Source: Caldifarciminota bacterium
Lineage (GTDB): Bacteria; Hydrothermota; UBA3073
DNA length: 64,000 bases
NCBI GenBank assembly: GCA_030606335.1
Contig: JAUWGP010000002.1
Span: 1 to 64,000, forward strand
Reading direction: 5' to 3'
Part shown: positions 9,552-52,633 of the stretch, one piece after another
Numbering within the stretch: position 1 is the stretch's first letter
Layout of the letters: each line of letters opens with the position of its first letter
Made by a program: the position numbers and the translations under genes
Notes under the pieces: model-generated
The model's input: the letters and a program-made list of their open reading frames with translations, nothing else
What the model was told of the DNA's origin: nothing
Database searches by the model: none

Positions 9552-9704
9552 TAACTCCATCACTTTAAACATTATATTCACATATAGCAAATTCATATTA
9601 ACTATTGAAAATCTATATAGATACAGATTATTATCCCTATATCCACATTCCCTATTATATATACTAATTTTTTTATTAATAACTATTAGAAGTAGAGGAC
9701 TATT

Positions 9705-10775: not shown

Positions 10776-10777
10776 TC

Positions 10778-37250: not shown

Positions 37251-37363
37251 TCCCCTTTGTTTTTTCCCTTGACAAAATCGTGATTTTGTTATATAATAAA
37301 GTATATTATATGGTCAAGATTAGACGTGATTGTAAATTGATTAGTACAGATAAACCTATGTTA
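37251..37363 (+). promoter_or_regulatory. Array promoter module P2
   Basis: TTGACA (37269-37274), 17-nt spacer, TATAAT (37292-37297). The conserved leader 'ttagtacagataaacctatg' follows, ending at GTTAGAC (37360-37366). The upstream boundary has diverged from the TTATACCCCACC form. Confidence 0.88.
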
Positions 37364-37441
37364 GACGCTGTTTCGAAATTGACAATAAGGCTAAGAAAGA
37401 AGCTGCGGTCCTATCCTTTGTAATGAAAGGAGGTGAAATAT

Positions 37442-37972
37442 ATGCGAATACTTACATCCAAGCGATTAATGGTACCGTTTATTAGTCTCGCTTTAATCTT
37501 TGGTCTTTGTGTGTCTTCTTTAATGGCACAACAGAAATTCAAGATTGCGGGAAAAATCACAGCTGCTTACACTGTACGTGAGGTAGTCGAGGTTGGTGAC
37601 ACTGAAGGACACTCACTTTATTTATTAAAAAATGAAGGATTCAATGAAAGCACAGGTGAGCATAAATTCATGGACGGAGCTGAAGTTGTTTGGTTTGGTA
37701 TTGCTGATTATATACAGGGCAATGGACCTCACACGGTTTATACGAAAATGTCCTTGAATGATAATGTGGTCTATGCTAAAGCTGAAGGGAAGACTACAAC
37801 AATTCTTTCTCCAGAAGGCAAACCTGTCACCACATTTGAAGGAACAATGTCTTTTACAAAAGGGATAGGCAAGTACAAAAACATCCAGGGAAGTAGTACT
37901 TATAAGGGAAAGCTTGTTTCAAGCGTTATCATAGTAATGAAATGGGAAGGAGAATATTTCATTAAACAGTGA
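37442..37972 (+). CDS. Secreted AOC/DUF3224-like beta-barrel protein (cassette gene)
   Basis: A 176-residue protein with a signal peptide (about 1-26, ending SSLMAQQ). The C-terminal half has FEGTMSFTKGIGKYKNIQGS, the pattern of allene-oxide-cyclase-like small barrels (DUF3224/AOC group). AGGAGG sits 9 nt before ATG 37442; a GTG at 37433 lies too near it. It is followed by the clear attC at 38070-38203. Function unknown. Confidence 0.7.
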   Translation: MRILTSKRLMVPFISLALIFGLCVSSLMAQQKFKIAGKITAAYTVREVVEVGDTEGHSLYLLKNEGFNESTGEHKFMDGAEVVWFGIADYIQGNGPHTVYTKMSLNDNVVYAKAEGKTTTILSPEGKPVTTFEGTMSFTKGIGKYKNIQGSSTYKGKLVSSVIIVMKWEGEYFIKQ

Positions 37973-38069
37973 GGCAAGAGCCTCGTTGTTTGATCCTTCT
38001 ATAGGAAAAGTCTTTGCAGGACCGCAGCTTCTTTACACATACTGTAGGAAATTCACCAAGCAAAATAGC

Positions 38070-38203
38070 GCCTAACAAGGCAATTAAGTTGACCCGAAGG
38101 GCTCTGTGCAAATTAAGACGTTCAGAGCTCCGCATCAGTTGTTTTTAAATTCAGAACGTTCGGGGCGCCGCAACCTTCGGGCAACTTATAGCCAGCGTTA
38201 TAC
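38070..38203 (+). other. attC-like site 1
   Basis: GCCTAAC (38070-38076) to GTTATAC (38197-38203). Arms TAACAAGGCAATTAAGTTGA and, in reverse complement of the 3' side, TAACGCTGGCTATAAGTTGC pair imperfectly, followed by CCGAAGG / CCTTCGG. About 60 bp of loop separates them. This is the layout of integron attC sites. Confidence 0.9.
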
Positions 38204-38323
38204 CCCACCCCACTCCCCTTTTATTTTTCCCTTGACAAAATAGCTATTGTGTTATATAATACAAGATGTCATATGGTTATTAAAGGCAGTGATTGTAAAT
38301 TTATTAGTACAGATAAACCTATG
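38198..38323 (+). promoter_or_regulatory. Array promoter module P3 (126 bp, GTTA-bounded)
   Basis: The module begins at TTATACCCCACC right after the G of attC 1 and ends at the G of 'cctatG|TTAGCC'. It has TTGACA (38232-38237), 17-nt spacer, TATAAT (38255-38260) and the conserved leader 'ttagtacagataaacctatg'. Same length and both borders as P8 (50871-50996). Confidence 0.9.
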
Positions 38324-38390
38324 TTAGCCCGCTTCGTCCGAACTGCCAGCTGCTTTCAACTGGCATATTACTGCAACAGGAGGTCAGTCA

Positions 38391-39182
38391 ATGGCTACAC
38401 CTAAAGGATATGTTGATCCTGATTATCTTCGGGTCGTTGGAGAGTTTCTTAACCAACTCAAGCGACGCACGTATACCAGCATGCAAATTGAAACGGGCCA
38501 TAAAGTGCTCGATGTTGGCTGTGGGCCCGGCACCGATACGATACCCCTGGCGCAACTTGTCGGCTCAACTGGACAAGTGAACGGCGTAGATTACGATGAA
38601 GCAATGGTCGCGGAAGCCGAGCAGTGCGCCGAGAAAGCGGGCGTAAGCGCCTGGGTCAAACACAAACAGGCCGATGCCACCTCGCTGCCATTTGAGTCTG
38701 GGTATTTTGACTCATGCCGTAGTGAGCGGTTGTTTCAACATTTACTCAATCCAGCGGCGGCTTTGGCCGAAATGACTCGTGTGACCAAAATAGATGGCTG
38801 GGTCGTTGTGCTGGATACCGATTGGGGTTCAGGTGGTATTGATACCAGTGAAATTGACGTTGAGCGGCGATTGAGTCGCTTTAATGCGGAGCGGATGTTT
38901 CACAATGGTTATTCTGGCCGCCAATTGTATCGGTTGTTCAAGAAGCAAGGTTTGACCGATGTCTCTTTTGAAGTGTTTCCCGTCGCGGTGACGAGTTATG
39001 CTCTTGGGCGCCAGATGTGGACACTGGATAGATTGGAGAGAGAAGCCCTTGCCGAAAACATAATCACGGAAGATGAACTTCACCGCCTGCAAACAAGCTG
39101 TGAGCAAGCCGATGCCGAGGGTGTGTTCTTTGGCTATGGTTGCGTGACGCTGGTCGCAGGTCGCAAAGGCGGCCATCTTTAG
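38391..39182 (+). CDS. Class I SAM-dependent methyltransferase (cassette gene)
   Basis: A 263-residue methyltransferase with motif I VLDVGCGPGTDTIPLA, motif II-like NGVDYDEAMVAEA, ADATSLPFESGYFDSCRSE and motif IV-like LAEMTRVTKIDGWVVVLD, characteristic of the Methyltransf_11/25 group. It is clearly more GC-rich than the flanking genes and has different codon use, consistent with acquisition as a cassette. AGGAGG precedes the ATG. It lies between module P3 and the compact attC 2. Substrate unknown. Confidence 0.88.
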   Translation: MATPKGYVDPDYLRVVGEFLNQLKRRTYTSMQIETGHKVLDVGCGPGTDTIPLAQLVGSTGQVNGVDYDEAMVAEAEQCAEKAGVSAWVKHKQADATSLPFESGYFDSCRSERLFQHLLNPAAALAEMTRVTKIDGWVVVLDTDWGSGGIDTSEIDVERRLSRFNAERMFHNGYSGRQLYRLFKKQGLTDVSFEVFPVAVTSYALGRQMWTLDRLEREALAENIITEDELHRLQTSCEQADAEGVFFGYGCVTLVAGRKGGHL

Positions 39183-39191
39183 CATAAGAGC

Positions 39192-39259
39192 GGCTAACCC
39201 CGCCATGCAGCCGACACACTCAGCTGCGATTCGCGTGCGGTTGATAGCAACCGTTAGGC
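39192..39259 (+). other. attC-like site 2 (68 bp)
   Basis: GGCTAAC (39192-39198) to GTTAGGC (39253-39259), with imperfectly pairing arms (CCATGCAGCCGAC on the left, GTGCGGTTGATAGCAACC on the right). It is a compact site 7 nt after the methyltransferase stop. No promoter module follows, so the next cassette depends on upstream transcription. Confidence 0.85.
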
Positions 39260-39315
39260 GGATGATTGTACTTGTTCATAAGGATTGAAAAGCTGATTGT
39301 GTTGGGGGTGCGACG

Positions 39316-39972
39316 ATGATGAATGTATGCTTCAATTGTGGTGAATACCGCGCTGACAAGATCATCGATCCAAGCGGACCATACGCTATTTGCCCTGTAT
39401 GTGAGTACAAACATCCCTTCCTGCAGCTTCCTCTCCTCGTCGTCGGAGGAGCAAGTGGAACGGGGAAATCAATGGTGTGTCATGCTCTGCTGGGGAGGAT
39501 GAATGGAGTGGTGCTGCTTGAAGGCGATCTTTTGTGGCAACCGGAGTTCAATAAGCCGGAAGATAAGTACATTGAATTCTTTGAGACGTGGCTGCGGATA
39601 TGCAAGAGTATATCACAGTCGGGCAGACCGGTTGTGATATTCAACGCGGGGATGGGGGTGCCGGAGAATGTGGAAGGATGCGTGGAGCGGCGGTACTTCT
39701 CGGATGTACATTACTTGGCATTGATATGTGACGATGAGGTGTTGGCGGAGCGACTGCGTAGTCGTCCGGTGTGGCAGAAGAGCAGTGGTCCGGCGAACGT
39801 CGAGGAGCAAGTAGGGTTTAATCGCTGGTTCAGGGAGCAAGGGGCACAAACAGAAACAGTGATTGAGTTAATAGACACAACAGGGGTTTCAGTGGAAGAG
39901 ACAGCAGAGCAGGTAGCTTTGTGGGTTTGCAGGAAGATTGGGGGTACTCGCTCTGGGGACGCATCCGCCTAA
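39316..39972 (+). CDS. Zinc-ribbon P-loop kinase-like protein (cassette gene)
   Basis: A 218-residue protein. The N-terminus has a CxxC...CxxC zinc ribbon (CFNCGEY ... CPVCEYKHP, about 5-35). A P-loop nucleoside/adenylate-kinase-like domain follows with Walker A VGGASGTGKSMV (about 43-54), LLEGDLLWQPEF and a lid-like ERLRSRPVWQ. The last codons (TRSGDASA) and the TAA stop run into the following attC, a typical cassette feature. GC-rich relative to the host. The phosphorylation target is unknown. Confidence 0.78.
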   Translation: MMNVCFNCGEYRADKIIDPSGPYAICPVCEYKHPFLQLPLLVVGGASGTGKSMVCHALLGRMNGVVLLEGDLLWQPEFNKPEDKYIEFFETWLRICKSISQSGRPVVIFNAGMGVPENVEGCVERRYFSDVHYLALICDDEVLAERLRSRPVWQKSSGPANVEEQVGFNRWFREQGAQTETVIELIDTTGVSVEETAEQVALWVCRKIGGTRSGDASA

Positions 39973-40098
39973 CCAGCATATGAAGCTGACCGCCTAATCG
40001 AGCATCCTTCAGTTGTTTGTTTTCGTTCTTGCAGCGCTTCATATCGCGGGTAATGTCACTGCGAAACCCGCAGGCAGCTTATGCGCCATCCGTTATCT
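39967..40098 (+). other. attC-like site 3
   Basis: GCCTAAC (39967-39973, containing the upstream gene's TAA stop) to GTTATCT (40092-40098). AGCATATGAAGCTGAC pairs imperfectly with GGCAGCTTATGCGCC. About 80 bp of loop. Confidence 0.88.
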
Positions 40099-40216
40099 GA
40101 CTATGGATTTATACAAAGCATGAATGGAAAAGGTAACAGTTGAATACATATGTTTAGTATGCTTAGAGATGTTTTTGTATCTTTTTTGCGGATAATAATT
40201 AGGAAAAGAGGAATAT

Positions 40217-41845
40217 ATGGCAAACAAAAAGACATTTAATGACCTTGGGCTTTCAGCAAAAGTACTGGAGGCAATTGATAAAAAGGGGTTTGAAGAGCCA
40301 ACCGCAATTCAGGCTATGACTATCCCTGTAATGCTAAGAGATGATACTAATATCATCGCTCAAGCCCAAAATGGTACAGGCAAAACAGCTGCATTTGGAT
40401 TATCTCTGATAGAAATGGTTAACACAGATTCCAAAACAGTTCAGGCACTAATTCTAGTTCCTACACGAGAGTTAGCCATTCAGGTATCAGAAGAAATCAA
40501 TTCACTCAAAGGAGACAAGGATATCAAAATAGTACCAATATATGGTGGTCAATCTATTGATCAACAGTTACGCAGATTAAAAAAAGGTGTCCATATTGTA
40601 GTTGGGACTCCGGGTAGGGTAATTGATCATCTTAACAGAAAGACACTAAAGCTTGGAAAAATTGAGCATCTGATACTTGATGAAGCAGATGAAATGCTAA
40701 ATATGGGATTCATCGAAGATATGGAAGAAATAATGAAGCATACAAATCTTGATAAAAGAACGTTATTGTTTTCAGCAACAATGCCAGGAAAGATAAAGGA
40801 CCTTGCACATAAATACATGGACGGTTATGAGTTTCTTAAAGTTAAGACGGAGCAACTGACAACTGATCTGACGGAGCAAATATACTTTGAGGTAAAAGCC
40901 TATGACAAATTTGAGGCACTATGCAGGATAATAGATATTGAAGATGATTTTTATGGTTTGGTTTTCTGCAGAACAAAGAGTGATGTTGATTCTCTTGTAG
41001 CTCATTTAATGGATAGAGGATATGACGCAGAAGCTATTCATGGAGATTTATCACAGGCGCAAAGAGAAAGAACTCTTAAAAAATTTAGGGAACAAAGAGT
41101 CAATATTCTTATAGCAACAGATGTTGCAGCACGTGGAATTGATGTTTATAATCTCACCCATGTTATAAACTATTCACTACCTCAAGATCCAGAGTCGTAT
41201 GTTCATCGAATAGGCCGTACAGGAAGGGCCGGGAATGAGGGCACCGCTATTACGTTTATTACTCCTAGTGAGTATAAGCGGCTGATGTTCATACAGAGGA
41301 TCGCCAGGACTGATATTAAGAAATCAAAAATACCGAAGGTAAAAGATATTATCGAAGCCAAAAAGAAAAAAATATCCGATGATCTGACTACTATTCTTGA
41401 AGATGAGATTGATACTAAATATCATAACTGGGCTAAGGAATTGCTTGAGGATAATAATCCGACAGAAATATTAGCTGCTGTACTTAACTATTCTTTCGAA
41501 GAAGAACTCAATCCTGATGCCTATGGTGAAATAAAAGAGGTCGGTGCAAAGGGGAAGCAACTTGACCAACAGGGTAAAGCAAGACTTTTTGTCGCACTTG
41601 GTAAGAAAGACAAGATTAATGCCAAAAAACTTGTTGAGCTTATTATGAGTAGAGTCTCAGTTAAACCCAAACATATCAGAGACATACAGATAATGGACAA
41701 ATTTTCTTTTATAACTGTTCCTTTTGAAAAAGCAGAGAAAATTGTTGTCAGTTTTAAAGAAAAGGGTCAGAAACCGCTGATCGCTCATGCCAAGAAAAGA
41801 ACAGATAAAAATGGCATGCAACGGACGCGCGGGGCGCACCGCTGA
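40217..41845 (+). CDS. DEAD-box RNA helicase (cassette gene)
   Basis: A 542-residue ATP-dependent RNA helicase of the DeaD/CshA type. Visible motifs are Q motif (GFEEPTAIQ), I AQNGTGKTAA, Ia PTRELAIQ, Ib GTPGRVIDH, II LDEADEML, III FSATMPG, IV VFCRTKSD, V ATDVAARGIDVYN and VI HRIGRTGRAG, plus a C-terminal RNA-binding DbpA-like region (about 460-525). The last codons (MQRTRGAHR) fall in attC-like sequence. Base composition is host-like. A helicase this size is unusual as a cassette cargo. GAGGAATAT precedes the ATG. Confidence 0.95.
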   Translation: MANKKTFNDLGLSAKVLEAIDKKGFEEPTAIQAMTIPVMLRDDTNIIAQAQNGTGKTAAFGLSLIEMVNTDSKTVQALILVPTRELAIQVSEEINSLKGDKDIKIVPIYGGQSIDQQLRRLKKGVHIVVGTPGRVIDHLNRKTLKLGKIEHLILDEADEMLNMGFIEDMEEIMKHTNLDKRTLLFSATMPGKIKDLAHKYMDGYEFLKVKTEQLTTDLTEQIYFEVKAYDKFEALCRIIDIEDDFYGLVFCRTKSDVDSLVAHLMDRGYDAEAIHGDLSQAQRERTLKKFREQRVNILIATDVAARGIDVYNLTHVINYSLPQDPESYVHRIGRTGRAGNEGTAITFITPSEYKRLMFIQRIARTDIKKSKIPKVKDIIEAKKKKISDDLTTILEDEIDTKYHNWAKELLEDNNPTEILAAVLNYSFEEELNPDAYGEIKEVGAKGKQLDQQGKARLFVALGKKDKINAKKLVELIMSRVSVKPKHIRDIQIMDKFSFITVPFEKAEKIVVSFKEKGQKPLIAHAKKRTDKNGMQRTRGAHR

Positions 41846-41860
41846 TGCCCGCCGTTAGAC
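41803..41860 (+). other. attC-like site 4 overlapping the helicase 3' end
   Basis: Ends with a good GTTAGAC box (41854-41860) preceded by GCTGATGCCCGCC. The left arm GGCATGCAACGGACGCGC lies within the helicase coding sequence and pairs imperfectly, and the RYYYAAC box is degraded (GATAAAA). A compact site of the kind common in environmental cassettes. Confidence 0.65.
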
Positions 41861-41947
41861 AAACCAGGCATGATATGAAACGTGACGACGCGACGGCACC
41901 ACTAGCGGCGAAAAGATAACGGACAACGGGAAAAAAGGAGGCACACA

Positions 41948-42058
41948 ATGGGAGACAAAGGCAAAAAGGATAAGGAAAAGGGTCGGAAACAGAAGAAAAC
42001 AAAACGGGAACAAAAGGCAAAAAGGAAGCTGGATAAACAACAGAGAAAAATCCCGTAA
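41948..42058 (+). CDS. 36-residue lysine-rich peptide (cassette gene)
   Basis: A very basic small protein beginning MGDKGKKDKEKGRKQKKTKR, almost entirely Lys/Arg/Gln/Glu. AAGGAGG lies 8 nt before the ATG, a strong start signal. It follows attC 4 and begins a new cassette. Peptides starting MGDK-K-KDK are seen in several environmental genomes, though I cannot assign a role; nucleic-acid binding is a guess from charge. No clear attC follows; the 245-nt gap to the next gene contains an inverted repeat CTCTTGAT / ATCAAGAG (about 42229-42255). Confidence 0.62.
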   Translation: MGDKGKKDKEKGRKQKKTKREQKAKRKLDKQQRKIP

Positions 42059-42303
42059 CAAAAAGTATCGTGAGATGTCCGCCTCACCAGTACGACCAAA
42101 ATGGTCGTGTCCCTTGATGGACCTGCAATGGTGCCCTGTTCTTGGCTCCATGGCGGGCGGTCCCGCCCTGATGGGGTCTTTCAGGGAGACAGAGGTTCAA
42201 ACGGAAAAGGGGGTGGGTCAAATCTTTACTCTTGATGCATTGTGGCTATCAAGAGCCATAATAAAAGTGTGTCAAGAGCATTAATTATTAACAGGAGGGT
42301 ATC

Positions 42304-42936
42304 ATGAAGAACATGGTTATATTTTTGGTGGTATTTTTAACAGTTTTTACGGTTTTGCCTGCCAGTGCTCAGGTAAATCTTGGTGTTTTGGGCGGACTAA
42401 ATCTGGCAAGCTGTGACGTAGATCCATTAGAAGAAATGGAAATATCTAACCTTACAGCATTTGGATTCGGCTGTGTTTTAGATTATAGTCTGAATGAATT
42501 TATTACGCTCCACCTTGAGCCGATGTATTTACAAAAGGGGACTAAGGGAGATTGGGAAATGTTCGAACTCGAATTTAAATTAGCCTATATCGAAATTCCA
42601 GTGATGCTCAAATATGCTTTTGGTACCAGTGAGATCAAACCCTATGTAATAGCTGGGCCAACTATCGGTTACCTCCTGAGTGGTACAATGAAGATGAGCG
42701 GGGACGGCTATTCAGAGGAAGAAGATATTGAAGATGAAACCAAAAGTCTTGATTTCGGCCTTTGTTTTGGTGCTGGTGTGAGTGTACCGATGAGTAATAA
42801 TTCCATTTTCTTGGAAGCTCGCTATGCCCTTGGTCTAACAAACATAAATGACGATCCAGATGACCCAGATACAGATGTTAAAACCAAAGGAATTCAGATT
42901 TTTGCTGGAATTACTTTTCCGATAGGCATCAAGTAA
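42304..42936 (+). CDS. PorT-family outer-membrane beta-barrel protein
   Basis: A 210-residue protein with a signal peptide (MKNMVIFLVVFLTVFTVLPASAQ) and PorT/OMP_b-brl pattern: VNLGVLGGLNLAS, LHLEPMYLQKG, YIEIPVMLKYAF, KPYVIAGPTIGYLLSG, LDFGLCFGAGV and IFLEARYALGLTNI. Such barrels are common in FCB-group bacteria, so this may be a host-type gene recruited to the array. AGGAGGG precedes the ATG at 6 nt. It is followed by the strong attC at 43008. Confidence 0.85.
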   Translation: MKNMVIFLVVFLTVFTVLPASAQVNLGVLGGLNLASCDVDPLEEMEISNLTAFGFGCVLDYSLNEFITLHLEPMYLQKGTKGDWEMFELEFKLAYIEIPVMLKYAFGTSEIKPYVIAGPTIGYLLSGTMKMSGDGYSEEEDIEDETKSLDFGLCFGAGVSVPMSNNSIFLEARYALGLTNINDDPDDPDTDVKTKGIQIFAGITFPIGIK

Positions 42937-43007
42937 GGTTTCCTATCGTTATACTCAGCCTTAACTATTAAAGGTAATTATCATTAAAGTATGCTGTTTA
43001 TATTTTA

Positions 43008-43141
43008 GCCTAACAAAGCAATTAAGCCGACACAAGGGCTGTGTTTATAAAGAGTTACGTTTGGTGCGTAGCATAAAATTATTAACATATTTAATGTTCA
43101 GTGTGCCGTAGCCCTTGTGCAGCTTATCGCAATCGTTATAC
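43008..43141 (+). other. attC-like site 5
   Basis: GCCTAAC (43008-43014) to GTTATAC (43135-43141). AAGCCGACACAAGGGCT pairs with AGCCCTTGTGCAGCTT, with bulges next to the terminal boxes. One of the clearest sites in the array. Confidence 0.92.
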
Positions 43142-43380
43142 CCCACCACGGTCCCCTTTTATTTTTCCCTTGACAAAATTATGAAAATGCTATATAATAA
43201 AGGCGTTTTACATTTTAGAGGTAGCCGCAACCTTCAGGTTGCGTTGTAATTCGCGGGCTGAAGCCTGCGCTTACCATATTCATAAAAAAGCGAAATTACC
43301 TTTGCTAATACAGTACTAGAAAAGTTTATACGGTTAAAATAAGATGTGATTTTACATTTATTAGTACAGATAAACCAAGG
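43136..43380 (+). promoter_or_regulatory. Array promoter module P4, interrupted by a REP-like insertion
   Basis: Begins TTATACCCCACC after attC 5. TTGACA (43170-43175), 17-nt spacer, TATAAT (43193-43198). About 119 extra bases then separate it from the leader 'ttagtacagataaacc', which ends at 43380 (GTTCGAT). The extra sequence includes CGCAACCTTCAGGTTGCG and 'gcgggctgaagcctgcg', typical REP hairpins. Confidence 0.85.
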
Positions 43381-43398
43381 TTCGATTGCAGTATAAAT

Positions 43399-43860: not shown

Positions 43861-43874
43861 CTAATACGTTATGA
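43816..43874 (+). other. attC-like site 6 (59 bp) bridging two genes
   Basis: Left box ATCGAAC (43816-43822), right box GTTATGA (43868-43874). AGCTGAAGGCGACGCGG pairs with CCGCACGCCTTAGCT. The HIT stop codon lies within it, and the next gene's ATG is formed by the right box itself. Confidence 0.82.
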
Positions 43875-44683
43875 ATTTATCAAAATTATCAATAACTGTT
43901 ATATTATTATTCTTATCGACCGTATTTTTATCAGGCTGTTCGGTAATACGATCTTCAATTGCAATGATGCGTTCTACTGAACATTTTATAGCACACAACA
44001 AAGATCCAAGGGTTTTATATGAGCCTGGGGCAAAAATATTTGCTGATAGTATTGTGGCAAGCTTACCTCAATCCATACAGCAGATCGAAAATAGGCAGTA
44101 TCGGCATTTTGTTGAACCTGTAAAGGTTTATGTTTGTGCATCGGAAGAAAGCTTTTACAAACTATATGGTGCCAGAGTAAAAGCTGGTGTTAGCAATAAG
44201 CTGTTGCTATCTCCGCGTTTAATGAATGAACCAGAAAACATCCATCTATATTTAACTCATGAATTATCTCATCTTCATTTATACCAGCAGTTGGGTTTGT
44301 TAAGATTTAGGGATTTACCTTCTTGGTTCAAAGAAGGTCTTGCTACTTTCGTTTCAGATGGTGGTGGAGCACAAACTGTATCAGAAAATGAGGCAATCAA
44401 ATCGATCGTTAATGGCAAACATTTTATACCTGTAAGTGGTGGCTTTTTTGGATGTTTCAATCAAAAATCGTCAGCGGACAAGGCTCTCAGCCATCACATG
44501 AGATATCGCCAAAATATGATATTTGTCTCATTTATAAAGAATAAAGATGAAAAGAAATTCAAAAGTTTTTTATTGAGTATTCAAGATGGTATTAATTTTT
44601 CAGAATCAATTCAGAAATCGTATGACACAGCTTTAGAGCAGTTATGGCAAGATTTTATAAAAGATATACATTCAAAAGGCTAA
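43871..44683 (+). CDS. Lipoprotein zinc metallopeptidase, gluzincin type (cassette gene)
   Basis: A 270-residue predicted lipoprotein (signal with lipobox LSGC at about 20-23). The zinc motif HELSHLHLY (HExxH) is followed after about 20 residues by WFKEGLATFVSD, the Glu-containing gluzincin helix, as in peptidase MA-like proteins. The start codon is inside the attC right box and no SD is visible, so translation may depend on a leaderless or coupled start. The TAA stop is inside the next attC. AT-rich, unlike the preceding HIT gene. Confidence 0.78.
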   Translation: MNLSKLSITVILLFLSTVFLSGCSVIRSSIAMMRSTEHFIAHNKDPRVLYEPGAKIFADSIVASLPQSIQQIENRQYRHFVEPVKVYVCASEESFYKLYGARVKAGVSNKLLLSPRLMNEPENIHLYLTHELSHLHLYQQLGLLRFRDLPSWFKEGLATFVSDGGGAQTVSENEAIKSIVNGKHFIPVSGGFFGCFNQKSSADKALSHHMRYRQNMIFVSFIKNKDEKKFKSFLLSIQDGINFSESIQKSYDTALEQLWQDFIKDIHSKG

Positions 44684-44821
44684 CAAGGCGCTGCACCTAA
44701 CCCTGTGAAATAGCAGTGTAATATTATGACTCTATTCATTCAATTTGCTTTATTAGACAATTTATTGTTATTTGTAATTATTTGAAATGTTTCACAGGGC
44801 AGGTGAGCTTGTCCGTTATAC
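44678..44821 (+). other. attC-like site 7
   Basis: GGCTAAC (44678-44684, containing the stop codon) to GTTATAC (44815-44821). CACCTAACCCTGTGAAA pairs with TTTCACAGGGCAGGTG. Long AT-rich loop of about 80 bp. Confidence 0.92.
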
Positions 44822-45025
44822 CCCACCACACTCCCCTTTTATTTTTCCCTTGACAAAATCAGAATCTTATTATATAATTATATCCGAAGGATCCGTCCAC
44901 AGGAACCAATGGTTATGGACAACACAAGTTGAGAGATTGATTAGATAAAAAGTAATAAGTAAGAGATTATGTCATATGGTAAAGATTATCCACGGTTGTA
45001 AATTTATTAGTACAGATAAACCTAT
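44816..45025 (+). promoter_or_regulatory. Array promoter module P5
   Basis: TTATACCCCACC start after attC 7; TTGACA (44850-44855), 17-nt spacer, TATAAT (44873-44878). About 84 bp longer than P3/P8, with extra sequence around 44890-44970. The leader 'ttagtacagataaacctat' ends at a mutated junction (ATTGGAC). Confidence 0.85.
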
Positions 45026-45171
45026 ATTGGACAGCCAAACATCACTCCAACCCAGCTGGAGTCACTGACAAATTAATAAGTCCAACTACTCATACATAGT
45101 ATTGGAACGCAAAATAGAGCTAGCAGATATTCTTTCTGCCAGCTAATGTTTCTCGGTTGAAAGGAGGTTTT

Positions 45172-46440: not shown

Positions 46441-46600
46441 GGAAATATAAACTAAATCACATTCGGTGTTAAAATTCGCATAACCTCCACTACGCCCAAT
46501 CAGGTTTGACCTTGATCAAATCGTATAGTGTGGGGTAGTGTAGGTAGTCTTGATGAGATTGAGTTCAGAGAAGTTGGTAGAATGAAGTCTATGTAAAATC

Positions 46601-47158
46601 ATGAGCCAGCGTCCAACAGTAGAAACGAAATGGCTGATTCTCAGACCCTTTTACCTGTCTGATGCAGCAGAAGTCCAACGTCTTGCTGGTGATAGTGCCA
46701 TAGCAAACACAACGCTCAACATTCCCCATCCGTATGAAGATGGCTTGGCAGAGGATTGGATTTCAAAACATCAGGAGATATATGAACAGGGCAAAGGTGT
46801 TCATTTTGCCATAACGCTCAAACCTGCTGGTACTCTCGTAGGTGCAATCGGTCTTATGAATATGACCAGGGGACACCAGGCAGAGCTTGGTTACTGGATA
46901 GGCAAACCGTATTGGAACAAAGGATTCTGTACGGAAGCCGGACATGCGGTAATCCAGTTTGGGTTCCAGGAACTTAATTTAATCCGAATCAACTCCCGTC
47001 ATCTCAGTCGTAACCCTGCTTCCGGTCGTGTTATGTAGAAACTGGGAATGTCACACGAAGGTCGCCAAAGGAAGTACGTAAAAAAGTGGGACAAGTTTGA
47101 GGATTTCGAACTCTATGGTATTCTCAAACAGGACTGGGAAAAAGCGGTTAATAGTTAA
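46601..47158 (+). pseudogene. RimJ/RimL-type GNAT acetyltransferase broken by an in-frame amber codon
   Basis: The reading frame encodes a GNAT acetyltransferase of 185 codons with RPFYLSDAAEVQRLAGD, HFAITLKPAGTLVGAIGL, ELGYWIGKPYWNKGFCTEA and NSRHLSRNPASGRVM. Codon 146 is TAG (47036-47038). The same frame then continues without interruption as KLGMSHEGRQRKYVKKWDKF and further to a TAA at 47156-47158, matching the expected C-terminus. In homologs the position is usually Gln or Glu, so a CAG-to-TAG change is likely. Either the gene is dead, a 145-residue product is made, or the codon is read through. Confidence 0.85.
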
Positions 47159-47214
47159 TAGATTTATGTATAAACCTGGCTCGTTTTGAAATTTTAACCC
47201 TAGAAGAAAATCAT

Positions 47215-47817: not shown

Positions 47818-47869
47818 AGTGTTGATGTAGTCAAACTGGGCTTCACAATATTTCCACTCTGTTTTTTCC

Positions 47870-47940
47870 TTAACAAAACAGTGATTATACTATATAATAC
47901 AAGATGTTATACAGTTTCTAATAGTTGTGATTGTAAATTT
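47870..47940 (+). promoter_or_regulatory. Array promoter P6
   Basis: TTAACA (47870-47875), 17-nt spacer, TATAAT (47893-47898), followed by 'gtgattgtaaattta', after which the conserved leader breaks off. It is the only copy with a non-consensus -35. Confidence 0.8.
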
Positions 47941-48014
47941 ACGTTGATTGGAATAGTATTATATCGAAAGAGAAGAAAAATGACCCAAAACATGAGGAGT
48001 AAAGCAAGATCAAG

Positions 48015-48203
48015 ATGAATACTATGATATTAACGGGAAAGGGGTACGTTGTAACTACCTGTTACTGCTCTTTGGGCTGGGTTAATGCAGTTTTTGAGAC
48101 TATTTTAGGCAAACCAGTGAAGGTGAAGCTTGAACAAGCGATTGGTCGTGGTGATAAAGTATGCAAATTCACTATTTTGCTTGGACATAAATTCTATGAT
48201 TAA
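48015..48203 (+). CDS. Short C-terminal V4R-like fragment
   Basis: Sixty-two residues with VVTTCYCSLGWVNAVFETIL and GKPVKVKLEQAIGRGDKVCK, which resembles the C-terminal end of V4R / hydrocarbon-binding or ATC-hydrolase-like domains (x-GDxxCxFxI). The upstream part of such a domain is absent, so this may be a truncated gene whose promoter leader is also truncated. Expression as a mini-protein is possible; confidence in function is low. Confidence 0.4.
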   Translation: MNTMILTGKGYVVTTCYCSLGWVNAVFETILGKPVKVKLEQAIGRGDKVCKFTILLGHKFYD

Positions 48204-48261
48204 GCAATCCTCAAAATTGGTGCTTTTAAACAGTATAGAGTTATTTTGATATAATCGGTAT

Positions 48262-48327
48262 ATGGCAAGAAAACCTCATATTGAATATCCTGATTCGTTT
48301 TGTCATATTATAGCAAGGAGTAACCTT
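48262..48327 (+). pseudogene. N-terminal remnant of a RAYT transposase
   Basis: Encodes MARKPHIEYPDSFCHIIARS, the highly characteristic N-terminus of REP-associated tyrosine transposases (usual form MARPxRIEFPGAxYHVxxRGN). The frame then runs directly into an unrelated membrane protein. Only the first 22 codons remain. Confidence 0.8.
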
Positions 48328-48552
48328 ATGAAACCCTGGATTAGTATCCTATTCATTATTCTTGGAATAGTTCTTTTTATATTTGGTGGGATGTTGGTTT
48401 TAACTTTCTATTCTTTTCCAATAATCTCCAAAATAATGGTAGTTGCTTTATGGAGTGCTGTTATTACATTTTCAATAGTAGCAATAATTGGATTGGCTAT
48501 TCTAACATTAGGAATAATAAATTTAATCCGTTTTAAACGTCAGTCATCCTGA
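48328..48552 (+). CDS. Small two-helix membrane protein downstream of the RAYT remnant
   Basis: A 74-residue protein with two long hydrophobic helices (about 4-27 and 39-65) and a basic tail (RFKRQSS). The frame is open back to 48262, but AAGGAG (48315-48320) sits 7 nt before ATG 48328, so this internal ATG is the likely start and the transposase-derived codons are leader. If the upstream ATG is used instead, the product is a 96-residue fusion with a transposase-derived N-terminus. Function unknown. Confidence 0.6.
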   Translation: MKPWISILFIILGIVLFIFGGMLVLTFYSFPIISKIMVVALWSAVITFSIVAIIGLAILTLGIINLIRFKRQSS

Positions 48553-48626
48553 CCCTGCTCATGGCGGGGAAACCGAGCAATAAATGTTAGCCATACATAA
48601 AATTCATAAAATAAAAAGGGGGTTTT

Positions 48627-49370
48627 ATGAAGCGTGTAGCAAAACTGATGTTGGTTATGACGATTGTTTTATCCTTCTTTTGCTTAGCTTTCGCAGCAGA
48701 TCAATCAGAGCCACGTTTGATTACAGTCACTGGAGATGCGGAAGTAAGAGTTGTGCCGGATGAGGTTATTCTTACTCTTGGTGTAGAGACTTGGAATAAT
48801 GATTTAAGTATTGCAAAGACTGAGAACGATCAGCGAATACAGAAAATTGTTGATGTAGGTAAAAAATACAAGATAAAAGAAAAACATATCCAAACCGATT
48901 ATATTAGTATTGAACCACGATATAAAGATCAATGGGAACACCGAAAATTTATTGGTTACTTTGTTCGTAAGACTATTGTCTTTACATTAAGAGATACTGA
49001 TATATTTGAGGGACTTCTCAGTAGTGTTCTTGAGGCTGGTGCAAACTACGTCCATGGAATACAGTTTCGTACTACTGAACTTCGAAAGTATAGAGATCAA
49101 GCACGTGCTTTGGCAATTAAGGCTGCTCAGGAAAAAGCAAATGATTTAGCTAAAGAACTTGGTCAAAAAGTTGGCAAACCTTATAGAATTCAGGAAAATC
49201 AATCCGGATGGAGGTCCTGGTACAATACATGGTGGGGATCAGGTAGGGCAGGTGGAATGGCTCAAAATGTCATTCAAAATGTCGCAGATCCATCTCAATC
49301 CGAAAGCAGTATTGCTCTGGGTCAGATTAAAGTGAATGCAAGAGTTACAGTAAGCTTTGAACTTGAATAG
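48627..49370 (+). CDS. SIMPL-domain (DUF541) periplasmic protein
   Basis: A 247-residue secreted protein with a signal peptide (about 1-23, ending CLAFAAD) and the SIMPL/DUF541 fold: ITVTGDAEVRVVPDEVILTL at its start, the middle QTDYISIEPRY and GYFVRKTIVFTLRD, and AIKAAQEKANDLAKELGQKV typical of the family helix. Family members (for example E. coli YggE) are linked to oxidative-stress or envelope functions but have no defined activity. AAAGGGGG precedes the ATG. Confidence 0.9.
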   Translation: MKRVAKLMLVMTIVLSFFCLAFAADQSEPRLITVTGDAEVRVVPDEVILTLGVETWNNDLSIAKTENDQRIQKIVDVGKKYKIKEKHIQTDYISIEPRYKDQWEHRKFIGYFVRKTIVFTLRDTDIFEGLLSSVLEAGANYVHGIQFRTTELRKYRDQARALAIKAAQEKANDLAKELGQKVGKPYRIQENQSGWRSWYNTWWGSGRAGGMAQNVIQNVADPSQSESSIALGQIKVNARVTVSFELE

Positions 49371-49738
49371 GGTCAACCTCAAAAATTTACAACTATTTGA
49401 TTTTTACTTGGGGGGAAAGTTAGCGTTATGTTTTAGACAGGATATAACTGTCTGCCGACAGGTAGACAAGATTGTAAATTATTTTTTATCCAGTATACCC
49501 TGTTCATCCCTGCCTGCAGCAGGCAGGCTGTCAAAAGAAAAAGTATTAGGGTGGAATCAACCCCGATTTCTAAATCCCTTCACAATTCCCCTTCTTTTTT
49601 CCCTTGACAAAATAGCTATTGTGTTATATAATAAAGGATACCACACGGTTAGTAAAGGTCGTGATTGTAAATTTATTAGTACAGATAAACCTATGTTATG
49701 CCGAAGCAAGGCGGATTAGGTTAAAGGGGCGTGTTTAC
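49371..49738. other. Gap with promoter module P7
   Basis: After the SIMPL gene come REP-like inverted pieces (CTGCCGACAGGTAG, CCTGCCTGCAGCAGGCAGG) and then the promoter P7. A 'gttagcgttatg' string at about 49420-49431 looks like a stray right-hand recombination box, but no matching left arm was found. No gene is supported. Confidence 0.6.
49571..49695 (+). promoter_or_regulatory. Array promoter module P7
   Basis: TTGACA (49604-49609), 17-nt spacer, TATAAT (49627-49632), leader 'ttagtacagataaacctatg' ending at GTTATGC (49695-49701). Core identical to P3 over 'cccttgacaaaatagctatt'. The left border differs from TTATACCCCACC. Confidence 0.9.
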
Positions 49739-49939
49739 CTATATCAACCGGTCTATTTCAGGCTGTTGTCTATAGTGAGCTAGCAATCGCTCGAGCTCAA
49801 GCGCCTGGACCGTTTCTTGCTCGGGATCATTGATGAAACCGGTGACATTTAGCAGACTAGAGAGCACATTGGCAACGTACACTCTGGCTACTCCGACACC
49901 TGGTGTTGGAATGCTTGAAATTGAGGCTTGTTGACCCAT
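49739..49939 (-). CDS. Possible small cassette gene in reverse orientation
   Basis: A minus-strand frame of 66 codons starting MGQQASISSIPTPGVGVARV, with GCAGAGG just upstream, and containing NDPEQETVQALELERLLAHY. It is GC-rich, unlike the host, and no plus-strand gene covers it. It would read against the array promoter. It lies between module P7 and a hairpin (49957-49989). I do not recognise the family, and it could be spurious. Confidence 0.4.
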   Translation of the reverse strand: MGQQASISSIPTPGVGVARVYVANVLSSLLNVTGFINDPEQETVQALELERLLAHYRQQPEIDRLI

Positions 49940-49956
49940 CCTCTGCATTAATTGTA

Positions 49957-49989
49957 GAGTCCTGCCCCCATGACGAGGGCAGGAGACTC
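49957..49989. repeat. Inverted repeat upstream of the 50082 methyltransferase
   Basis: GAGTCCTGCCC pairs with GGGCAGGAGACTC around a 9-nt loop. No T-run follows on either strand, so terminator function is doubtful. It lacks attC end boxes. Confidence 0.6.
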
Positions 49990-50081
49990 TCTGATCACTC
50001 AGAATGTTGTTCCGGAACTCATCTTATTCGCTCGGAGTTGTCCGACCATATGCAAATCAGAACTTAAGGGAGGTCAACGAA

Positions 50082-50651
50082 ATGGCCGCAAGCGGAGCTA
50101 AGAGAGACAAGCATTTCCCACTCTTTGCACATGATAATCTACTTAGAAGGCTGTTTAGCAGCCCTCGAAAGTACTGTCCCTATGTCAAACAGGATCAGAT
50201 CGTTGCTGACCTTGGTTGTGGTCCAGGCTATTATGCTCTCGCTTTGGCTGAAAGCGTTGGTGCCAAAGGACGGGTCTATGCCGTTGATTCAGATGAAAAG
50301 GCCATTCGAACGGTTGAAAGGAAGGCGGCCAAACGTGGATACCACAATATCGAAGCCCACGCTTCATCTGCCGCCAACCTCAGCTTCATTGAAGACGAGT
50401 CGGTTGACTTCGTTCTTGCCGACGGGCTATTGTGTTCCATGGCACCACAAGACCACCAGTCAGCCGTCAATGAAATAAAGCGCATTCTGAAACCAAACGG
50501 AAAGGCATTCCTCATGGCCGCCAAAGGCTCTATGAGCTACGTGGATAAAGCAGAGTGGGAGGAAATACTTGAGGGATTTAAAGTGGAGCGGAGGAATTAC
50601 GAGTCCTTCTTAGAGGATAGATGGGCGCTTGTGTCCAAAAAGCATCAATAA
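50082..50651 (+). CDS. Class I SAM-dependent methyltransferase (cassette gene)
   Basis: A 189-residue methyltransferase with motif I VADLGCGPGYYALALAESVG, AVDSDEKAIRTVERKA, a DFVLADGLLCSM motif IV region and EIKRILKPNGKAFLMAAKG. GGGAGG lies 8 nt before ATG 50082. GC-rich relative to host. Unrelated in detail to the 38391 methyltransferase. It is followed by a strong attC. Substrate unknown. Confidence 0.88.
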   Translation: MAASGAKRDKHFPLFAHDNLLRRLFSSPRKYCPYVKQDQIVADLGCGPGYYALALAESVGAKGRVYAVDSDEKAIRTVERKAAKRGYHNIEAHASSAANLSFIEDESVDFVLADGLLCSMAPQDHQSAVNEIKRILKPNGKAFLMAAKGSMSYVDKAEWEEILEGFKVERRNYESFLEDRWALVSKKHQ

Positions 50652-50752
50652 GAACACGCTAGTCGCGATTGTGCAGCGTACTTTCTGCGAATGGACAAAG
50701 CGCCTTTCGGAATTCCACTCACTTGGTCATCTTCGAATCATAGTAGGCTTCG

Positions 50753-50876
50753 GCATAACAACTTGCTGGAGCGGACGCCGCGCGCTGGGCGATTTGCATG
50801 CTTTGAAGCTTTTTAACCATGTGCGAAAATGAAGAGACGGTAAGAAGCGGCGCCGCTCAGCTCGCGACCGTTATAC
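50753..50876 (+). other. attC-like site 8
   Basis: GCATAAC (50753-50759) to GTTATAC (50870-50876). CTTGCTGGAGCGGACGCCGC pairs with GCGGCGCCGCTCAGCTCGCG, with mismatches near the ends. The 3' G is followed directly by promoter module P8. Confidence 0.92.
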
Positions 50877-50996
50877 CCCACCACACTCTCCTTTTATTTT
50901 TCCCTTGACAAAATAGCTATTGTGTTATATAATAAAGGATATTATACGGTTAAAATTAGCCGTAATTGTAAATTTATTAGCACAGATAAATCTGGG
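50871..50996 (+). promoter_or_regulatory. Array promoter module P8 (126 bp, GTTA-bounded)
   Basis: Starts TTATACCCCACC after the attC G and ends 'ctggG|TTAGGT'. TTGACA (50905-50910), 17-nt spacer, TATAAT (50928-50933), conserved leader with 'ttagcacagataaatctggg'. Exactly the length of P3. Confidence 0.9.
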
Positions 50997-51010
50997 TTAG
51001 GTGAAAATAT

Positions 51011-51580
51011 ATGAAAAAGAAGTATAAGATTAACTCGGAATCAAACATAAATACACACGCAGAGGTATTTCATTGCGCACATGTTTTGTATCGGACTATG
51101 CAAAAAAAACAAAGCGGCTGGCTTTACTTAAGCCTTCCTATAGTAACCATATGTGCGTTCTCAATTGAAGGTTTATGCAATCATATCGGAAATAAAAAAA
51201 TAGATTTTTGGAAGGAGATTGAAAGATCTACATCAATAAAATCAAAGATAAATATATTAATGAAGACGAAAAAAGATTTTTGGGGTCGTGAACTTTGGCA
51301 AACTGTGTCTGACATAATTCGGATTAGAGATATGCTTGCACACCCTAAAAGTGAAATTATCGAAAAAATGGAAACTTTAGAATTATCAGATGAAGAATTA
51401 GAAAATCACCCCTATCCTCAAACAAAATGGCAAACAACAATGGACATGGAAAAAATTCAGAATATCATGGTAAAAACAAAAAACGCTATGGAAGAACTTT
51501 GTGAAGCAAATAACATTGATACATATGATATATATGACACCGGATCATGGAGTCAAGAATCAACAACAATTAACACCTAA
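51011..51580 (+). CDS. HEPN-like domain protein (cassette gene)
   Basis: A 189-residue helical protein without membrane or signal segments. The centre holds ELWQTVSDIIRIRDMLAHPK, containing R-x4-H (RDMLAH), the hallmark catalytic pattern of HEPN ribonucleases found in toxins and defence proteins. The TAA stop overlaps the left attC box ACCTAAC. No antitoxin candidate is adjacent, so a role as RNase, defence effector or simply an RNA-binding helical protein is open. The ATG begins 14 nt after the leader junction and has no SD, suggesting leader-assisted translation. Confidence 0.6.
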   Translation: MKKKYKINSESNINTHAEVFHCAHVLYRTMQKKQSGWLYLSLPIVTICAFSIEGLCNHIGNKKIDFWKEIERSTSIKSKINILMKTKKDFWGRELWQTVSDIIRIRDMLAHPKSEIIEKMETLELSDEELENHPYPQTKWQTTMDMEKIQNIMVKTKNAMEELCEANNIDTYDIYDTGSWSQESTTINT

Positions 51581-51940
51581 CAACGCGATATTTAATCCAA
51601 AAAAGTTTACAAATTCTTCGTATTGTGAAAGTCAGCTAAACTTTTTGATGACAGAGCTTTCCTATCGGACATATCCTACTGGGAAAGGAGGGAAAGTGAC
51701 AGCTCCAGATCAGATGGAAGAGGATTCCTGGGAGTTCCATATGTTGATACCAGCAAGCGATGAGATAATATTCAAAGAAAATTGTGATGGTAATTAGTTG
51801 TTTTTCAGTTTTCAGCCTGATTCCTCTATAACTCGCTACAGCGGACGCCGCCAAGTGTACGAAAATCAAAATAAGGTACCTTGCGGCGACGCTCAAATCG
51901 CAGCCATAAGCCGGTCATTGGGTGAGGAGGTGAATTAACT
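51575..51940. other. Decayed cassette junctions and fragment
   Basis: A good left box ACCTAACAACGCG (51575-51587) has no right-hand partner within 200 bp. An unassigned fragment follows, open in one frame to a TAA near 51797 but without its own start (it includes GKGGKVTAPDQMEEDSWEFH). A degraded attC (51826-51913) then follows. Confidence 0.55.
51826..51913 (+). other. Degraded attC-like site 9
   Basis: Left box CTATAAC (51826-51832) and arms CTACAGCGGACGCCGC / GCGGCGACGCTCAAATCGC are present, but the right box reads CATAAGC instead of GTTRRRY. The stem is still clear; the loss of the G-TT point suggests the site is inactive. Confidence 0.65.
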
Positions 51941-52312
51941 ATGTCGCTTAAGTACTTATGTTTAGTTCTCATGCTCATTGCCATGTCTTGCGACTTGTTT
52001 GACTCAGGTAGCAATTTCCAATCAAACGCAAATCTTAAGGCACTTTCGATTCCGGACGCACAGTTTTATCCATCTTTTTCGTCGGACATCACGGAGTATT
52101 CAGTCACCTTTGATATATATCCACGCAGTTTTTTCCTAACAGCCACCGCGGAGAACAGTTCTGCAGCCATTAAAGTGAACGATACTGTTGTGGAATCCGG
52201 TCAGGAGATTCATGTCCAAACATCGCCACCTAATTTCGTTGTGAACATTGTTGTAACCTCGGTCGACGGCAAGAACGTGAAAACGTATGTACTAAACATA
52301 GTAGACAATTAG
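51941..52312 (+). CDS. Lipoprotein with cadherin-like beta-sandwich domain (cassette gene)
   Basis: A 123-residue predicted lipoprotein (LIAMSC lipobox at about 12-17) carrying one cadherin-like beta-sandwich module: ANLKALSIPDAQFYPSFSSD, ITEYSVTFDIYP, AAIKVNDTVVESGQEI and the ending VTSVDGKNVKTYVLNIV. Such modules usually occur as repeats in large surface proteins; here one domain stands alone on a lipid anchor. AGGAGG lies 8 nt before the ATG. A clear attC follows. Confidence 0.8.
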   Translation: MSLKYLCLVLMLIAMSCDLFDSGSNFQSNANLKALSIPDAQFYPSFSSDITEYSVTFDIYPRSFFLTATAENSSAAIKVNDTVVESGQEIHVQTSPPNFVVNIVVTSVDGKNVKTYVLNIVDN

Positions 52313-52320
52313 CAATTGAC

Positions 52321-52445
52321 ACCTAACCATTCACTAAACCTAACTGTAATCGCGATGGTGGTTTTCACACTGGGGTTGCAAGAACCACATTCGGATGCTT
52401 ATTTAAAAGGCGGATTTTCCAACAGGTTAGACCAAGTTGTTAGTT
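52321..52445 (+). other. attC-like site 10
   Basis: ACCTAAC (52321-52327) to GTTAGTT (52439-52445). CACTAAACCTAACTG pairs imperfectly with CAACAGGTTAGACCAAG, and an inner GGTTTTCAC / CCTTTTAAATAAG-type loop follows. Sited 8 nt after the lipoprotein stop. Confidence 0.8.
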
Positions 52446-52604
52446 GCTATAAAAACATTTAAAATCCGTTTGAAAATAATTAAAATATTGCTGTACTGTT
52501 TAGATACAGAGTATTCAAGTAAAGTTTTTTCTAAAAATCCGTATTTATTTGTACAAGTTACATACTGACTTTCTAAAATTCACCACACTTCCCCTTTTTT
52601 TCCC

Positions 52605-52633
52605 TTGACAAAATCGTGATTGTATTATATAAT
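52605..52633 (+). promoter_or_regulatory. Array promoter P9
   Basis: TTGACA (52605-52610), 17-nt spacer, TATAAT (52628-52633), preceded by 'caccacacttcccc'. Its downstream leader 'tatatccgaaagatctgcatgg' matches P1 rather than the GTTA-ended leader. The rest of 52446-52802 holds no gene. Confidence 0.88.

What the first reader, a model, noticed from the sequence alone, without database searches (positions are those of the whole stretch)
37251..52633. A repeated 126-bp promoter module bounded by the G|TTA crossover on both sides
Nine near-identical promoters (perfect or near-perfect TTGACA-N17-TATAAT) lie through the array. Two copies, 38198-38323 and 50871-50996, are both exactly 126 bp, start with TTATACCCCACC immediately after the G of an attC right box, and end at 'G' before TTAG. 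So they occupy exactly the space a cassette would. They contain no gene, only a promoter plus a conserved leader ('ttagtacagataaacctatg'). This looks like a mobile promoter cassette that re-supplies transcription inside the array, or a multiplied Pc-attI site. Ordinary integrons have one Pc, and later cassettes are silent. I know of no described system with a promoter module regularly interspersed like this.
Basis: partly seen in the sequence, partly recalled or inferred. Interest (0 to 1): 0.93.

Follow-up and report, generated by a model that had tools for sequence, protein, structure and literature searches.

The report
Portable promoter-attI units in integron arrays
In an uncultured bacterium related to candidate division WOR-3, a gene-capturing array (integron) holds several copies of a short gene-free unit, a predicted promoter joined to an integron docking site, two of them sitting exactly between captured genes; the units likely spread by integron recombination and would give one array many entry points instead of the usual one.

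Summary
Units 38198-38323 and 50871-50996 are 126 bp, start right after an attC crossover G and end at G|TTAG; two more copies (43136, 44816) share the left edge but carry insertions. So the module is a promoter-attI unit, not a cassette with its own attC. In the phylum, 17 of 147 genomes match this attI. I examined 75 copies on 44 stretches; 18 stretches hold two or more, always in one orientation. Three further types follow attC ends: promoter-attI in another family, attI alone (55 bp, three copies), and a third (three copies). Best reading: attI-ended, gene-less units were spread by integron recombination and serve as extra, promoter-equipped docking sites. Promoter cassettes and deltaattI-ended gene cassettes are published; repeated promoter-attI units inside arrays were not found in my searches. 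No integrase gene passed the integron cut-off; movement and promoter activity are inferred. New variant of a known kind.

The parts
37251..37360 (+). Copy 1: promoter-attI at the head of the array; junction G37360|T37361; left edge not an attC
   Evidence: Conserved in sister genome G001 (L079) while the following cassettes differ; promoter 37269; attI model E 4.5e-17
37361..38197 (+). Cassette A (ORF 37433-37972, no Pfam match) ending in attC about 38069-38197
   Evidence: 93% identical to G025:C41:10424-11137, match starting at query base 1 = 37362; no Pfam match; attC bottom strand folds, z -2.14
38198..38323 (+). Copy 2: 126-bp promoter-attI unit, between attC G and G|TTAGCC
   Evidence: promoter 38232; absent from the orthologous place in G001
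38324..39253 (+). Cassette B (methyltransferase, ORF 38391-39182); attC R'' complementary to its own start, 7 contiguous bases
39254..40092 (+). Cassette C (ORF 39316-39972, weak AAA match below Pfam cut-off); attC R'' complementary 9/9 to its own start
43007..43135 (+). attC that abuts copy 3
   Evidence: (z -2.45)
43136..43380 (+). Copy 3: promoter-attI with insertion; right junction changed to G|TTC
   Evidence: orthologue L078 1867 onward; the stretch adjoining the left edge (window 42236-43135, G001 1707-1866) shows no match between the two species, homology resuming further left
44677..44815 (+). attC that abuts copy 4 (also 94% identical in C49)
   Evidence: (z -2.02)
44816..45026 (+). 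Copy 4: promoter, a stretch like the intI-attI spacer of C49, then attI; right junction A|TTG
   Evidence: (44924-45028 78% to C49); the G001 orthologue lacks the TTATACCCC edge
47852..47941 (+). Copy 5: degenerate copy, attI end lost, promoter with one mismatch
49586..49695 (+). Copy 6: promoter-attI, junction G49695|T49696; left edge not an attC
   Evidence: next cassette's R'' complementary 9/9 to its start
49696..50870 (+). Cassette (methyltransferase ORF 50004-50651) with attC about 50751-50870, R'' CGGCATAAC complementary 9/9 to the cassette start
   Evidence: arm pairing p 0.0027; folding z only -0.25
50871..50996 (+). Copy 7: 126-bp promoter-attI unit between attC G and G|TTAGG
50997..51581 (+). 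Cassette after copy 7 (ORF 51011-51580, no Pfam match); R''-like ACACCTAAC complementary 8/9 to its start; 3' part of its attC not recognised, so its end is not known
52581..52633 (+). Promoter of the same type without attI, ahead of a radical-SAM gene (52803-53741); end of the array

Best explanation
The module is a promoter-attI unit, an integron docking site with a predicted promoter in front, whose edges are integron crossover points, and it was likely copied to several places in the array by integron-type recombination, where it would let new cassettes dock and be transcribed. Shown: the right half is an attI (homologues beside intI remnants, cassettes start at its G|TT, cassette turnover at copy 1); the left edge of four window copies is the crossover end of four different attCs; the two 126-bp copies lie between neighbouring cassettes; differently built units with the same edges recur in related genomes. 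Inferred: an integron integrase acting on the attC to the left and the attI on the right moved or copied the unit, alone or with a neighbouring cassette; the intI gene was lost from this type of unit, leaving its promoter directly in front of attI (copy 4 still holds a stretch like the intI-attI spacer); the promoter drives the cassettes that follow. Untested: promoter activity, excision, and which integrase does it.
For: attI identity: intI C-terminal remnants on the same strand about 110-140 bp upstream of attI in G000:C49 (twice), G132:C325 and G036:C273; the C49 fragment's only PDB match at E 0.001 is the integron integrase IntI4, 2a3v, E 1.3e-11. Use: of 70 attI copies followed by TT (75 examined, 5 dropped), 10 have a downstream attC whose R'' is complementary (7 or more contiguous bases) to the first bases after the junction, against mean 1.9 and maximum 6 in 200 shuffles. 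Turnover: copy 1 is conserved with G001 while the stretch between its G|TT and cassette D (|TTATCTGAC) is wholly replaced, A-copy 2-B-C here and one other cassette there. Left edges: 15 hand-picked edges; homology between copies of a type breaks at the edge (left 30 bp 5-21 identical, right 30 bp 25-29, apart from one doubtful G127 copy at 12-13); attC arm pairing p<0.05 in 9 of 15, Fisher 8e-10. Recurrence: same edges in a second promoter-attI type (G124, G132), attI-only units (G001:C7, three) and a third type (JAUXAI contig, three). Not an attC: bottom strand of the unit does not fold better than shuffles (z +0.89, -0.33; attI block +1.34) while three of four abutting attCs do (z -2.0 to -2.5). 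Promoter: site of at least 11/12 within 160 bp upstream of 19 of 75 attI copies against 77 of 6000 random places.
Against: No integrase passed the TIGR02249 cut-off in 100 relatives nor in 16 of the 17 attI-carrying genomes (the 17th, G012, was); the search scores pieces, but three of the best candidates rescored as whole proteins reached 166-223 bits against 265 and C9 212, nearer to XerA/XerC/D-type recombinases. So the enzyme is missing from what I could search. No case was found of the same two cassettes joined with and without a unit: copy 2 came or went together with three cassettes. Copies 1, 5 and 6 have no attC at the left edge, copy 4's orthologue in G001 lacks the edge, and for most of the 75 copies an attC-bounded left edge was not shown. 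Copies 2 and 7 are only 86% identical, so the spread is not recent. A 55-bp circle would be hard to form (general knowledge), so attI-only units may have moved with a neighbouring cassette. Six of 15 edges had p above 0.05 (two of them 0.49 and 0.78), two have A instead of G before TT, and the edges were chosen by eye. In the automatic scan, window copies 1, 2 and 7 scored only 5, 5 and 4; their agreement (8, 7, 8 of 9) rests on attCs that I located by eye (for B and 7; A by reading). I have no experiment.
Confidence: 0.6

Rival explanations
1. The unit itself never moved. Its attI takes cassettes on the right, and a second crossover-like triplet at its left edge (G|TTATA) took cassettes on the left, so attCs came to abut it; the several copies arose by ordinary duplication.
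For: The attI block begins with a conserved TTATAYGG, and one copy beside an intI remnant already reads GTGTTATACGG (C49), so a left GTT can pre-exist. The cassette adjoining copy 3 on the left differs between species, with the break at exactly that base.
Against: Needs several duplications and then an insertion at the identical base of each copy; left edges of the four types are different sequences (TTATACCCC, TTATAYGG, TTATCTNC, TTAGGGCTA) at different distances from attI; sequence left of the edges shows little sign of a shared duplicated flank.
Confidence: 0.22
2. Remains of several integron heads joined end to end: whole intI-attI heads were duplicated or fused into one array, and the intI genes decayed, leaving promoter and attI.
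For: C49 holds two heads with intI remnants about 5 kb apart in one array; copy 4 keeps a stretch like the intI-attI spacer.
Against: Decay does not explain why left edges fall at attC ends in four unit types (15 hand-picked edges, 9 with support of their own), nor attI-only units of 55 bp between cassettes. It may well explain where the unit came from.
Confidence: 0.12
3. Ordinary host promoters: the array simply contains many consensus promoters and cassettes with their own leaders, and the match of the edges is chance.
For: The promoter half is found elsewhere in this genome and perfect consensus promoters occur elsewhere in the window.
Against: The attI half is far from chance and recurs in arrays with attC; edges coincide with attC ends repeatedly; promoter count 8 against 0.06 expected.
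Confidence: 0.04

Closest known systems
Gene-less promoter cassettes of Vibrio superintegrons (PMC11014356; abstract, outline and passages seen) and ORF-less promoter cassettes of Treponema from the oral metagenome (PMC6557892; abstract and outline seen)
   Same: Gene-free units inside a cassette array that supply a promoter to the cassettes downstream
   Different: Those are cassettes with their own attC (491-666 bp in the Vibrio set); here the unit ends in attI, has no attC-like fold, is as short as 55-126 bp, and recurs with the same ends in one array. Their promoter activity was measured; here it is predicted
deltaattI-type gene cassettes of class 1 and 2 integrons (PMC12901181; abstract, passages and part 1 of 3 of the Results seen)
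   Same: Units inside arrays whose right end is an attI piece instead of attC, including attC-ORF-deltaattI; IntI1 was shown to excise and insert them
   Different: Those carry an ORF, in most cases with 14-18 nt of attI (one type 244 nt, one case a complete attI1); here there is no cassette-size ORF, the whole conserved attI block is present in six window copies, a promoter precedes it, and further cassettes have docked at it
Integron platform (intI, Pc, attI), as described in PMC11014356
   Same: Promoter followed by attI and cassettes with attC
   Different: One platform per integron is the textbook layout; here up to six attI copies lie in one array, no integrase passed the integron cut-off, and intI remnants point the same way as the cassettes

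Membership tests
Gene-less promoter cassette | No gene, lies between cassettes in an array | tested here: met
   126-bp units between neighbouring cassettes
Gene-less promoter cassette | Carries its own attC at the 3' end | tested here: not met
   Bottom strand does not fold as attC; 3' end is attI
Gene-less promoter cassette | Promoter activity | not testable with these tools
   Perfect consensus only
deltaattI-type gene cassette | Right end is attI sequence, left neighbour is attC or attI | tested here: met
   Copies 2, 3, 4, 7 of the window
deltaattI-type gene cassette | Contains an ORF whose attC was replaced | tested here: not met
   The unit is 126 bp and no ORF of 80 aa or more lies in it (shorter ORFs not listed); only an 18-codon leader reading is possible
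deltaattI-type gene cassette | Excised and inserted by an integron integrase | not testable with these tools
   Only sister-species replacement bounded by crossover points
Integron platform | attI at which cassettes are inserted | tested here: met
   copy 1 turnover
Integron platform | Intact intI gene | tested here: inconclusive
   0 of 100 and 0 of 16 genomes over the cut-off, remnants beside attI in 4 places; best whole-protein candidates 166-223 bits against 265. The MAG is about 90% complete, so absence is not proven
Integron cassette array | attC sites with R''/R' and L''/L' pairing ending at G|TT | tested here: met

The most novel reading that the evidence does not exclude
A distributed integron: in this phylum the capture platform itself (promoter plus attI) has become a mobile cassette-like part, copied through arrays by the integrase, so that each array has many promoter-equipped entry ports. 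This arose several times, from different promoter-attI sequences.
Probability: 0.4. Interest if true: 0.85.

Novelty: new variant of a known kind. Interest (0 to 1): 0.74.

Why it matters
Integrons are described as having one entry point and one main promoter, so cassettes far from it are held to be mostly silent unless promoter cassettes help. Arrays with several promoter-attI units would take in and express genes at many positions, and would show that the platform can travel as a cassette. It would also change how integron arrays are annotated in uncultured lineages, where an attI is expected beside intI.

Tried and rejected
Module as an ordinary cassette with attC: rejected. Full intI in C9: a recombinase below the integron cut-off (212 against 265 bits) and best matched by a XerA-type model, itself just below cut-off. 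Intact intI in relatives: none over cut-off; three of the best candidates (in G002, G005 and G001) rescored as whole proteins gave 223, 207 and 166 bits against 265, with the XerA-type model scoring higher; other candidates were not rescored. IMG/VR viral contigs: no match to the attI pattern. Empty site in the second family: G126 keeps the same attC region and the first 14 bases of the unit (one changed) and then diverges, so it is not an empty site. G001:C7 has no match at E 1e-20 in the 9 other genomes searched. attI as a translated leader: the frame is open in 39 of 42 full copies, but variation is not concentrated at third codon positions and the start codon is often not ATG, so it is left as a lead. 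My first attC scan missed several attCs that are clear by eye and gave 1, 1 and 4 matches in control stretches, so I relied on folds and the edge test. The left-edge attC score placed at the start of the attI block is not informative: random GTTATA places score about as high (10 of 84 at 8 or more). In one search the three L082 stretches were folded on the array's top strand, so I do not count them. In one search the row for cassette A used a start one base off and is void; read directly, its R'' GCGCCTAAC agrees with 8 of 9 bases expected from its start. The alignment A1 used for model R1 held one misplaced row (L144); the later HMM left it out.

Literature searches. Those for multiple, internal or tandem attI and for integrons with WOR-3 or Stahlbacteria listed nothing that, from titles and abstract starts, describes repeated attI inside arrays; I saw 25 of 394 papers and 15 of 28. 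Only open-licence PubMed Central papers are held.
Full report
What was checked. The window is G000:C11:1-64000 of a 2.43-Mb MAG, 90.4% complete. The exact string TTATACCCCACC occurs at 38198, 43136, 44816 and 50871 and nowhere else in the window. Each time the base before it is the G that ends an attC. Copies 2 and 7 are exactly 126 bp and end at G|TTAG. Eight promoters of the form TTGACA-N17-TATAAT (seven perfect, one with a mismatch) lie on + in 37.2-52.7 kb, against 0.06 expected; a ninth is at 36363. The same promoter type occurs elsewhere in this genome without the right half.

The right half is an attI. A search of the genome with copy 2 finds its right half, without the promoter, on contigs C49 (twice), C53, C26, C13 and C15. 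On C49 both copies lie about 140 bp downstream, on the same strand, of a remnant of an integron integrase gene; that remnant's only match among solved structures at E 0.001 is IntI4, 2a3v, E 1.3e-11. The same order is seen in G132:C325 (remnant 4012-4194, attI from 4321) and G036:C273 (remnant 511-672, attI 344-397, both minus). A sequence model of 58 positions built from 33 rows, one of them misplaced, matches 17 of 147 genomes of the phylum at E 1e-4 (strict filters and a capped first look, so a lower bound). In the stretches that I held I examined 75 copies on 44 stretches; 18 stretches hold two or more copies, always on one strand (one contig counts as two neighbouring stretches). The best conserved part is ATTAGTACAGATAAACCTATGTT.

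Cassettes dock at these sites. In an attC the first arm (R'') is complementary to the first bases of its own cassette, so a cassette's true start can be read from its attC (general knowledge of integrons). Of 70 attI copies followed by TT (5 of 75 dropped), 10 have a downstream attC whose R'' matches the bases right after the attI junction over at least 7 contiguous bases; 200 shuffles gave a mean of 1.9 and at most 6. Among them are copy 6 of the window, one unit of G001:C7, one of G127:C293 and two of the JAUXAI array, each 9/9. In the window the cassettes after copies 2, 6 and 7 match over 7, 9 and 8 bases, and cassette C 9/9; those after copies 1, 2 and 7 were not credited by the automatic scan (5, 5 and 4) and rest on attC arms located by eye. 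So copy 2 lies between cassettes A and B, and copy 7 follows a complete cassette and precedes one that starts at its junction, though the 3' part of that last attC was not recognised.

Sister species. The window array is orthologous to G001 contigs C36 and C28, with long matches of 92-98% identity. Copy 1 is conserved, but right after its G|TT the window has cassette A, copy 2, B and C, while G001 has one other cassette; both then run into the same helicase cassette at |TTATCTGAC. The replaced stretch, which includes copy 2, is thus bounded by crossover points on both sides. At copy 3 homology starts at |TTATAY; the adjoining stretch to the left (window 42236-43135, G001 1707-1866) shows no match, with a different attC before the edge in each species, and homology resumes beyond it. 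Copy 4 is conserved, but in G001 it lacks the TTATACCCC edge. Cassette A also occurs in G025, a genome of another family, with a match that begins at its first bases.

The same architecture elsewhere. Three other types of gene-less, attI-ended units follow attC ends. (a) G001:C7: three 55-bp attI units, no promoter. (b) G124:C39 (two), G124:C55 and G132:C478: units of about 159-189 bp in G124 with the left end TTAGGGCTATTATTAATTTTC (variants), a TTGACA-N16 promoter and attI; G132:C173 has one whose attI end is lost. The first G124:C39 unit and that of G132:C478 follow related attCs but are followed by different cassettes. (c) Contig JAUXAI010000002: three units of 129, 83 and 164 bp with the left end TTATCT. 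For 15 hand-picked edges, copies of a type agree right of the edge (25-29 of 30 bases; one doubtful G127 copy 12-13) and much less left of it (5-21 of 30). Pairing of attC arms left of the edge is better than at 95% of random places in 9 of 15, Fisher p 8e-10; six edges were above 0.05, two of them 0.49 and 0.78, two edges have A for G, and the choice of edges by eye inflates the figure.

It is not an attC cassette. As single-stranded DNA the bottom strand of three of the four abutting attCs folds better than shuffles (z -2.14, -2.45, -2.02; the fourth -0.25), while the unit does not (z +0.89 for copy 2, -0.33 for copy 7, +1.34 for the attI block of copy 2).

How it likely works. Inferred: an integron integrase can join the attC at the left with the attI at the right, so the stretch between is, or was, a mobile unit ended by attI; moved alone or with a neighbour, it leaves a promoter and a fresh attI inside the array. 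New cassettes then enter at that attI and are transcribed from the promoter. Recombination of attC-ORF-deltaattI units by IntI1 has been measured (PMC12901181: abstract, passages and part 1 of 3 of the Results seen). The promoter-attI fusion probably came from loss of intI between its promoter and attI: intI remnants and attI are co-directional, and copy 4 retains a stretch like the intI-attI spacer of C49.

What speaks against it. No integrase passed the integron cut-off: 0 of 100 genomes and 0 of 16, the 16 being all attI carriers but G012, which was. That search scores pieces; three of the best candidates rescored whole gave 166-223 bits against 265, C9 212. No place was found where one unit alone is present in one genome and absent in another. 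Copies 1, 5 and 6 in the window have no attC at the left, and for most of the 75 copies an attC-bounded left edge was not shown. Promoter function is predicted only; a site of at least 11/12 lies within 160 bp upstream of 19 of 75 attI copies (160 bp held for 72), against 77 of 6000 random places.

Compared with what is known. Gene-less cassettes with promoter activity are published (PMC11014356, PMC6557892), and a review already speaks of mobile promoter cassettes (PMC11676243, one passage seen). These carry attC. deltaattI-type cassettes carry ORFs and in most cases 14-18 nt of attI. A promoter with a full attI, without a cassette-size gene, repeated through one array and itself loaded with cassettes, was not found in my ten searches of open-licence papers (listed under Tried and rejected). 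I call it a new variant of a known kind.

Noticed in passing
L082 (G001:C7) 2930-2986, 5185-5242, 7733-7789, minus strand: Three attI blocks of 55 bp stand between an attC and the next cassette with no promoter at all; the attI alone appears to behave as a unit.
   Followed up: partly
attI core in the full-length copies, e.g. L087 6365-6421 minus: The attI block can be read as an 18-codon leader (MVKNSRDCNFISTDKLML in this copy) running through the crossover, with a GGAGG-like site in several copies; open in 39 of 42 but without a codon-position signal.
   Followed up: partly
L039 (G000:C49) 7500-13000, minus strand: Two array heads about 5 kb apart, each with an intI remnant cut at a similar point followed by a similar AT-rich spacer.
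   Followed up: partly
L116 6914-6970 and L117 2329-2372, minus strand: The same attI in MAGs titled Thermoplasmatota archaeon and Bacteroidetes bacterium: transfer or mis-binning.
   Followed up: no
window 46601-47162: A GNAT acetyltransferase frame of 145 aa here that is 184 aa in the sister genome G001.
   Followed up: no
window 40217-41845; L177 1201-2898: An ORF much like the DEAD-box helicase of the window also lies about 1.3 kb before an attI copy in G126, a genome of another family.
   Followed up: no
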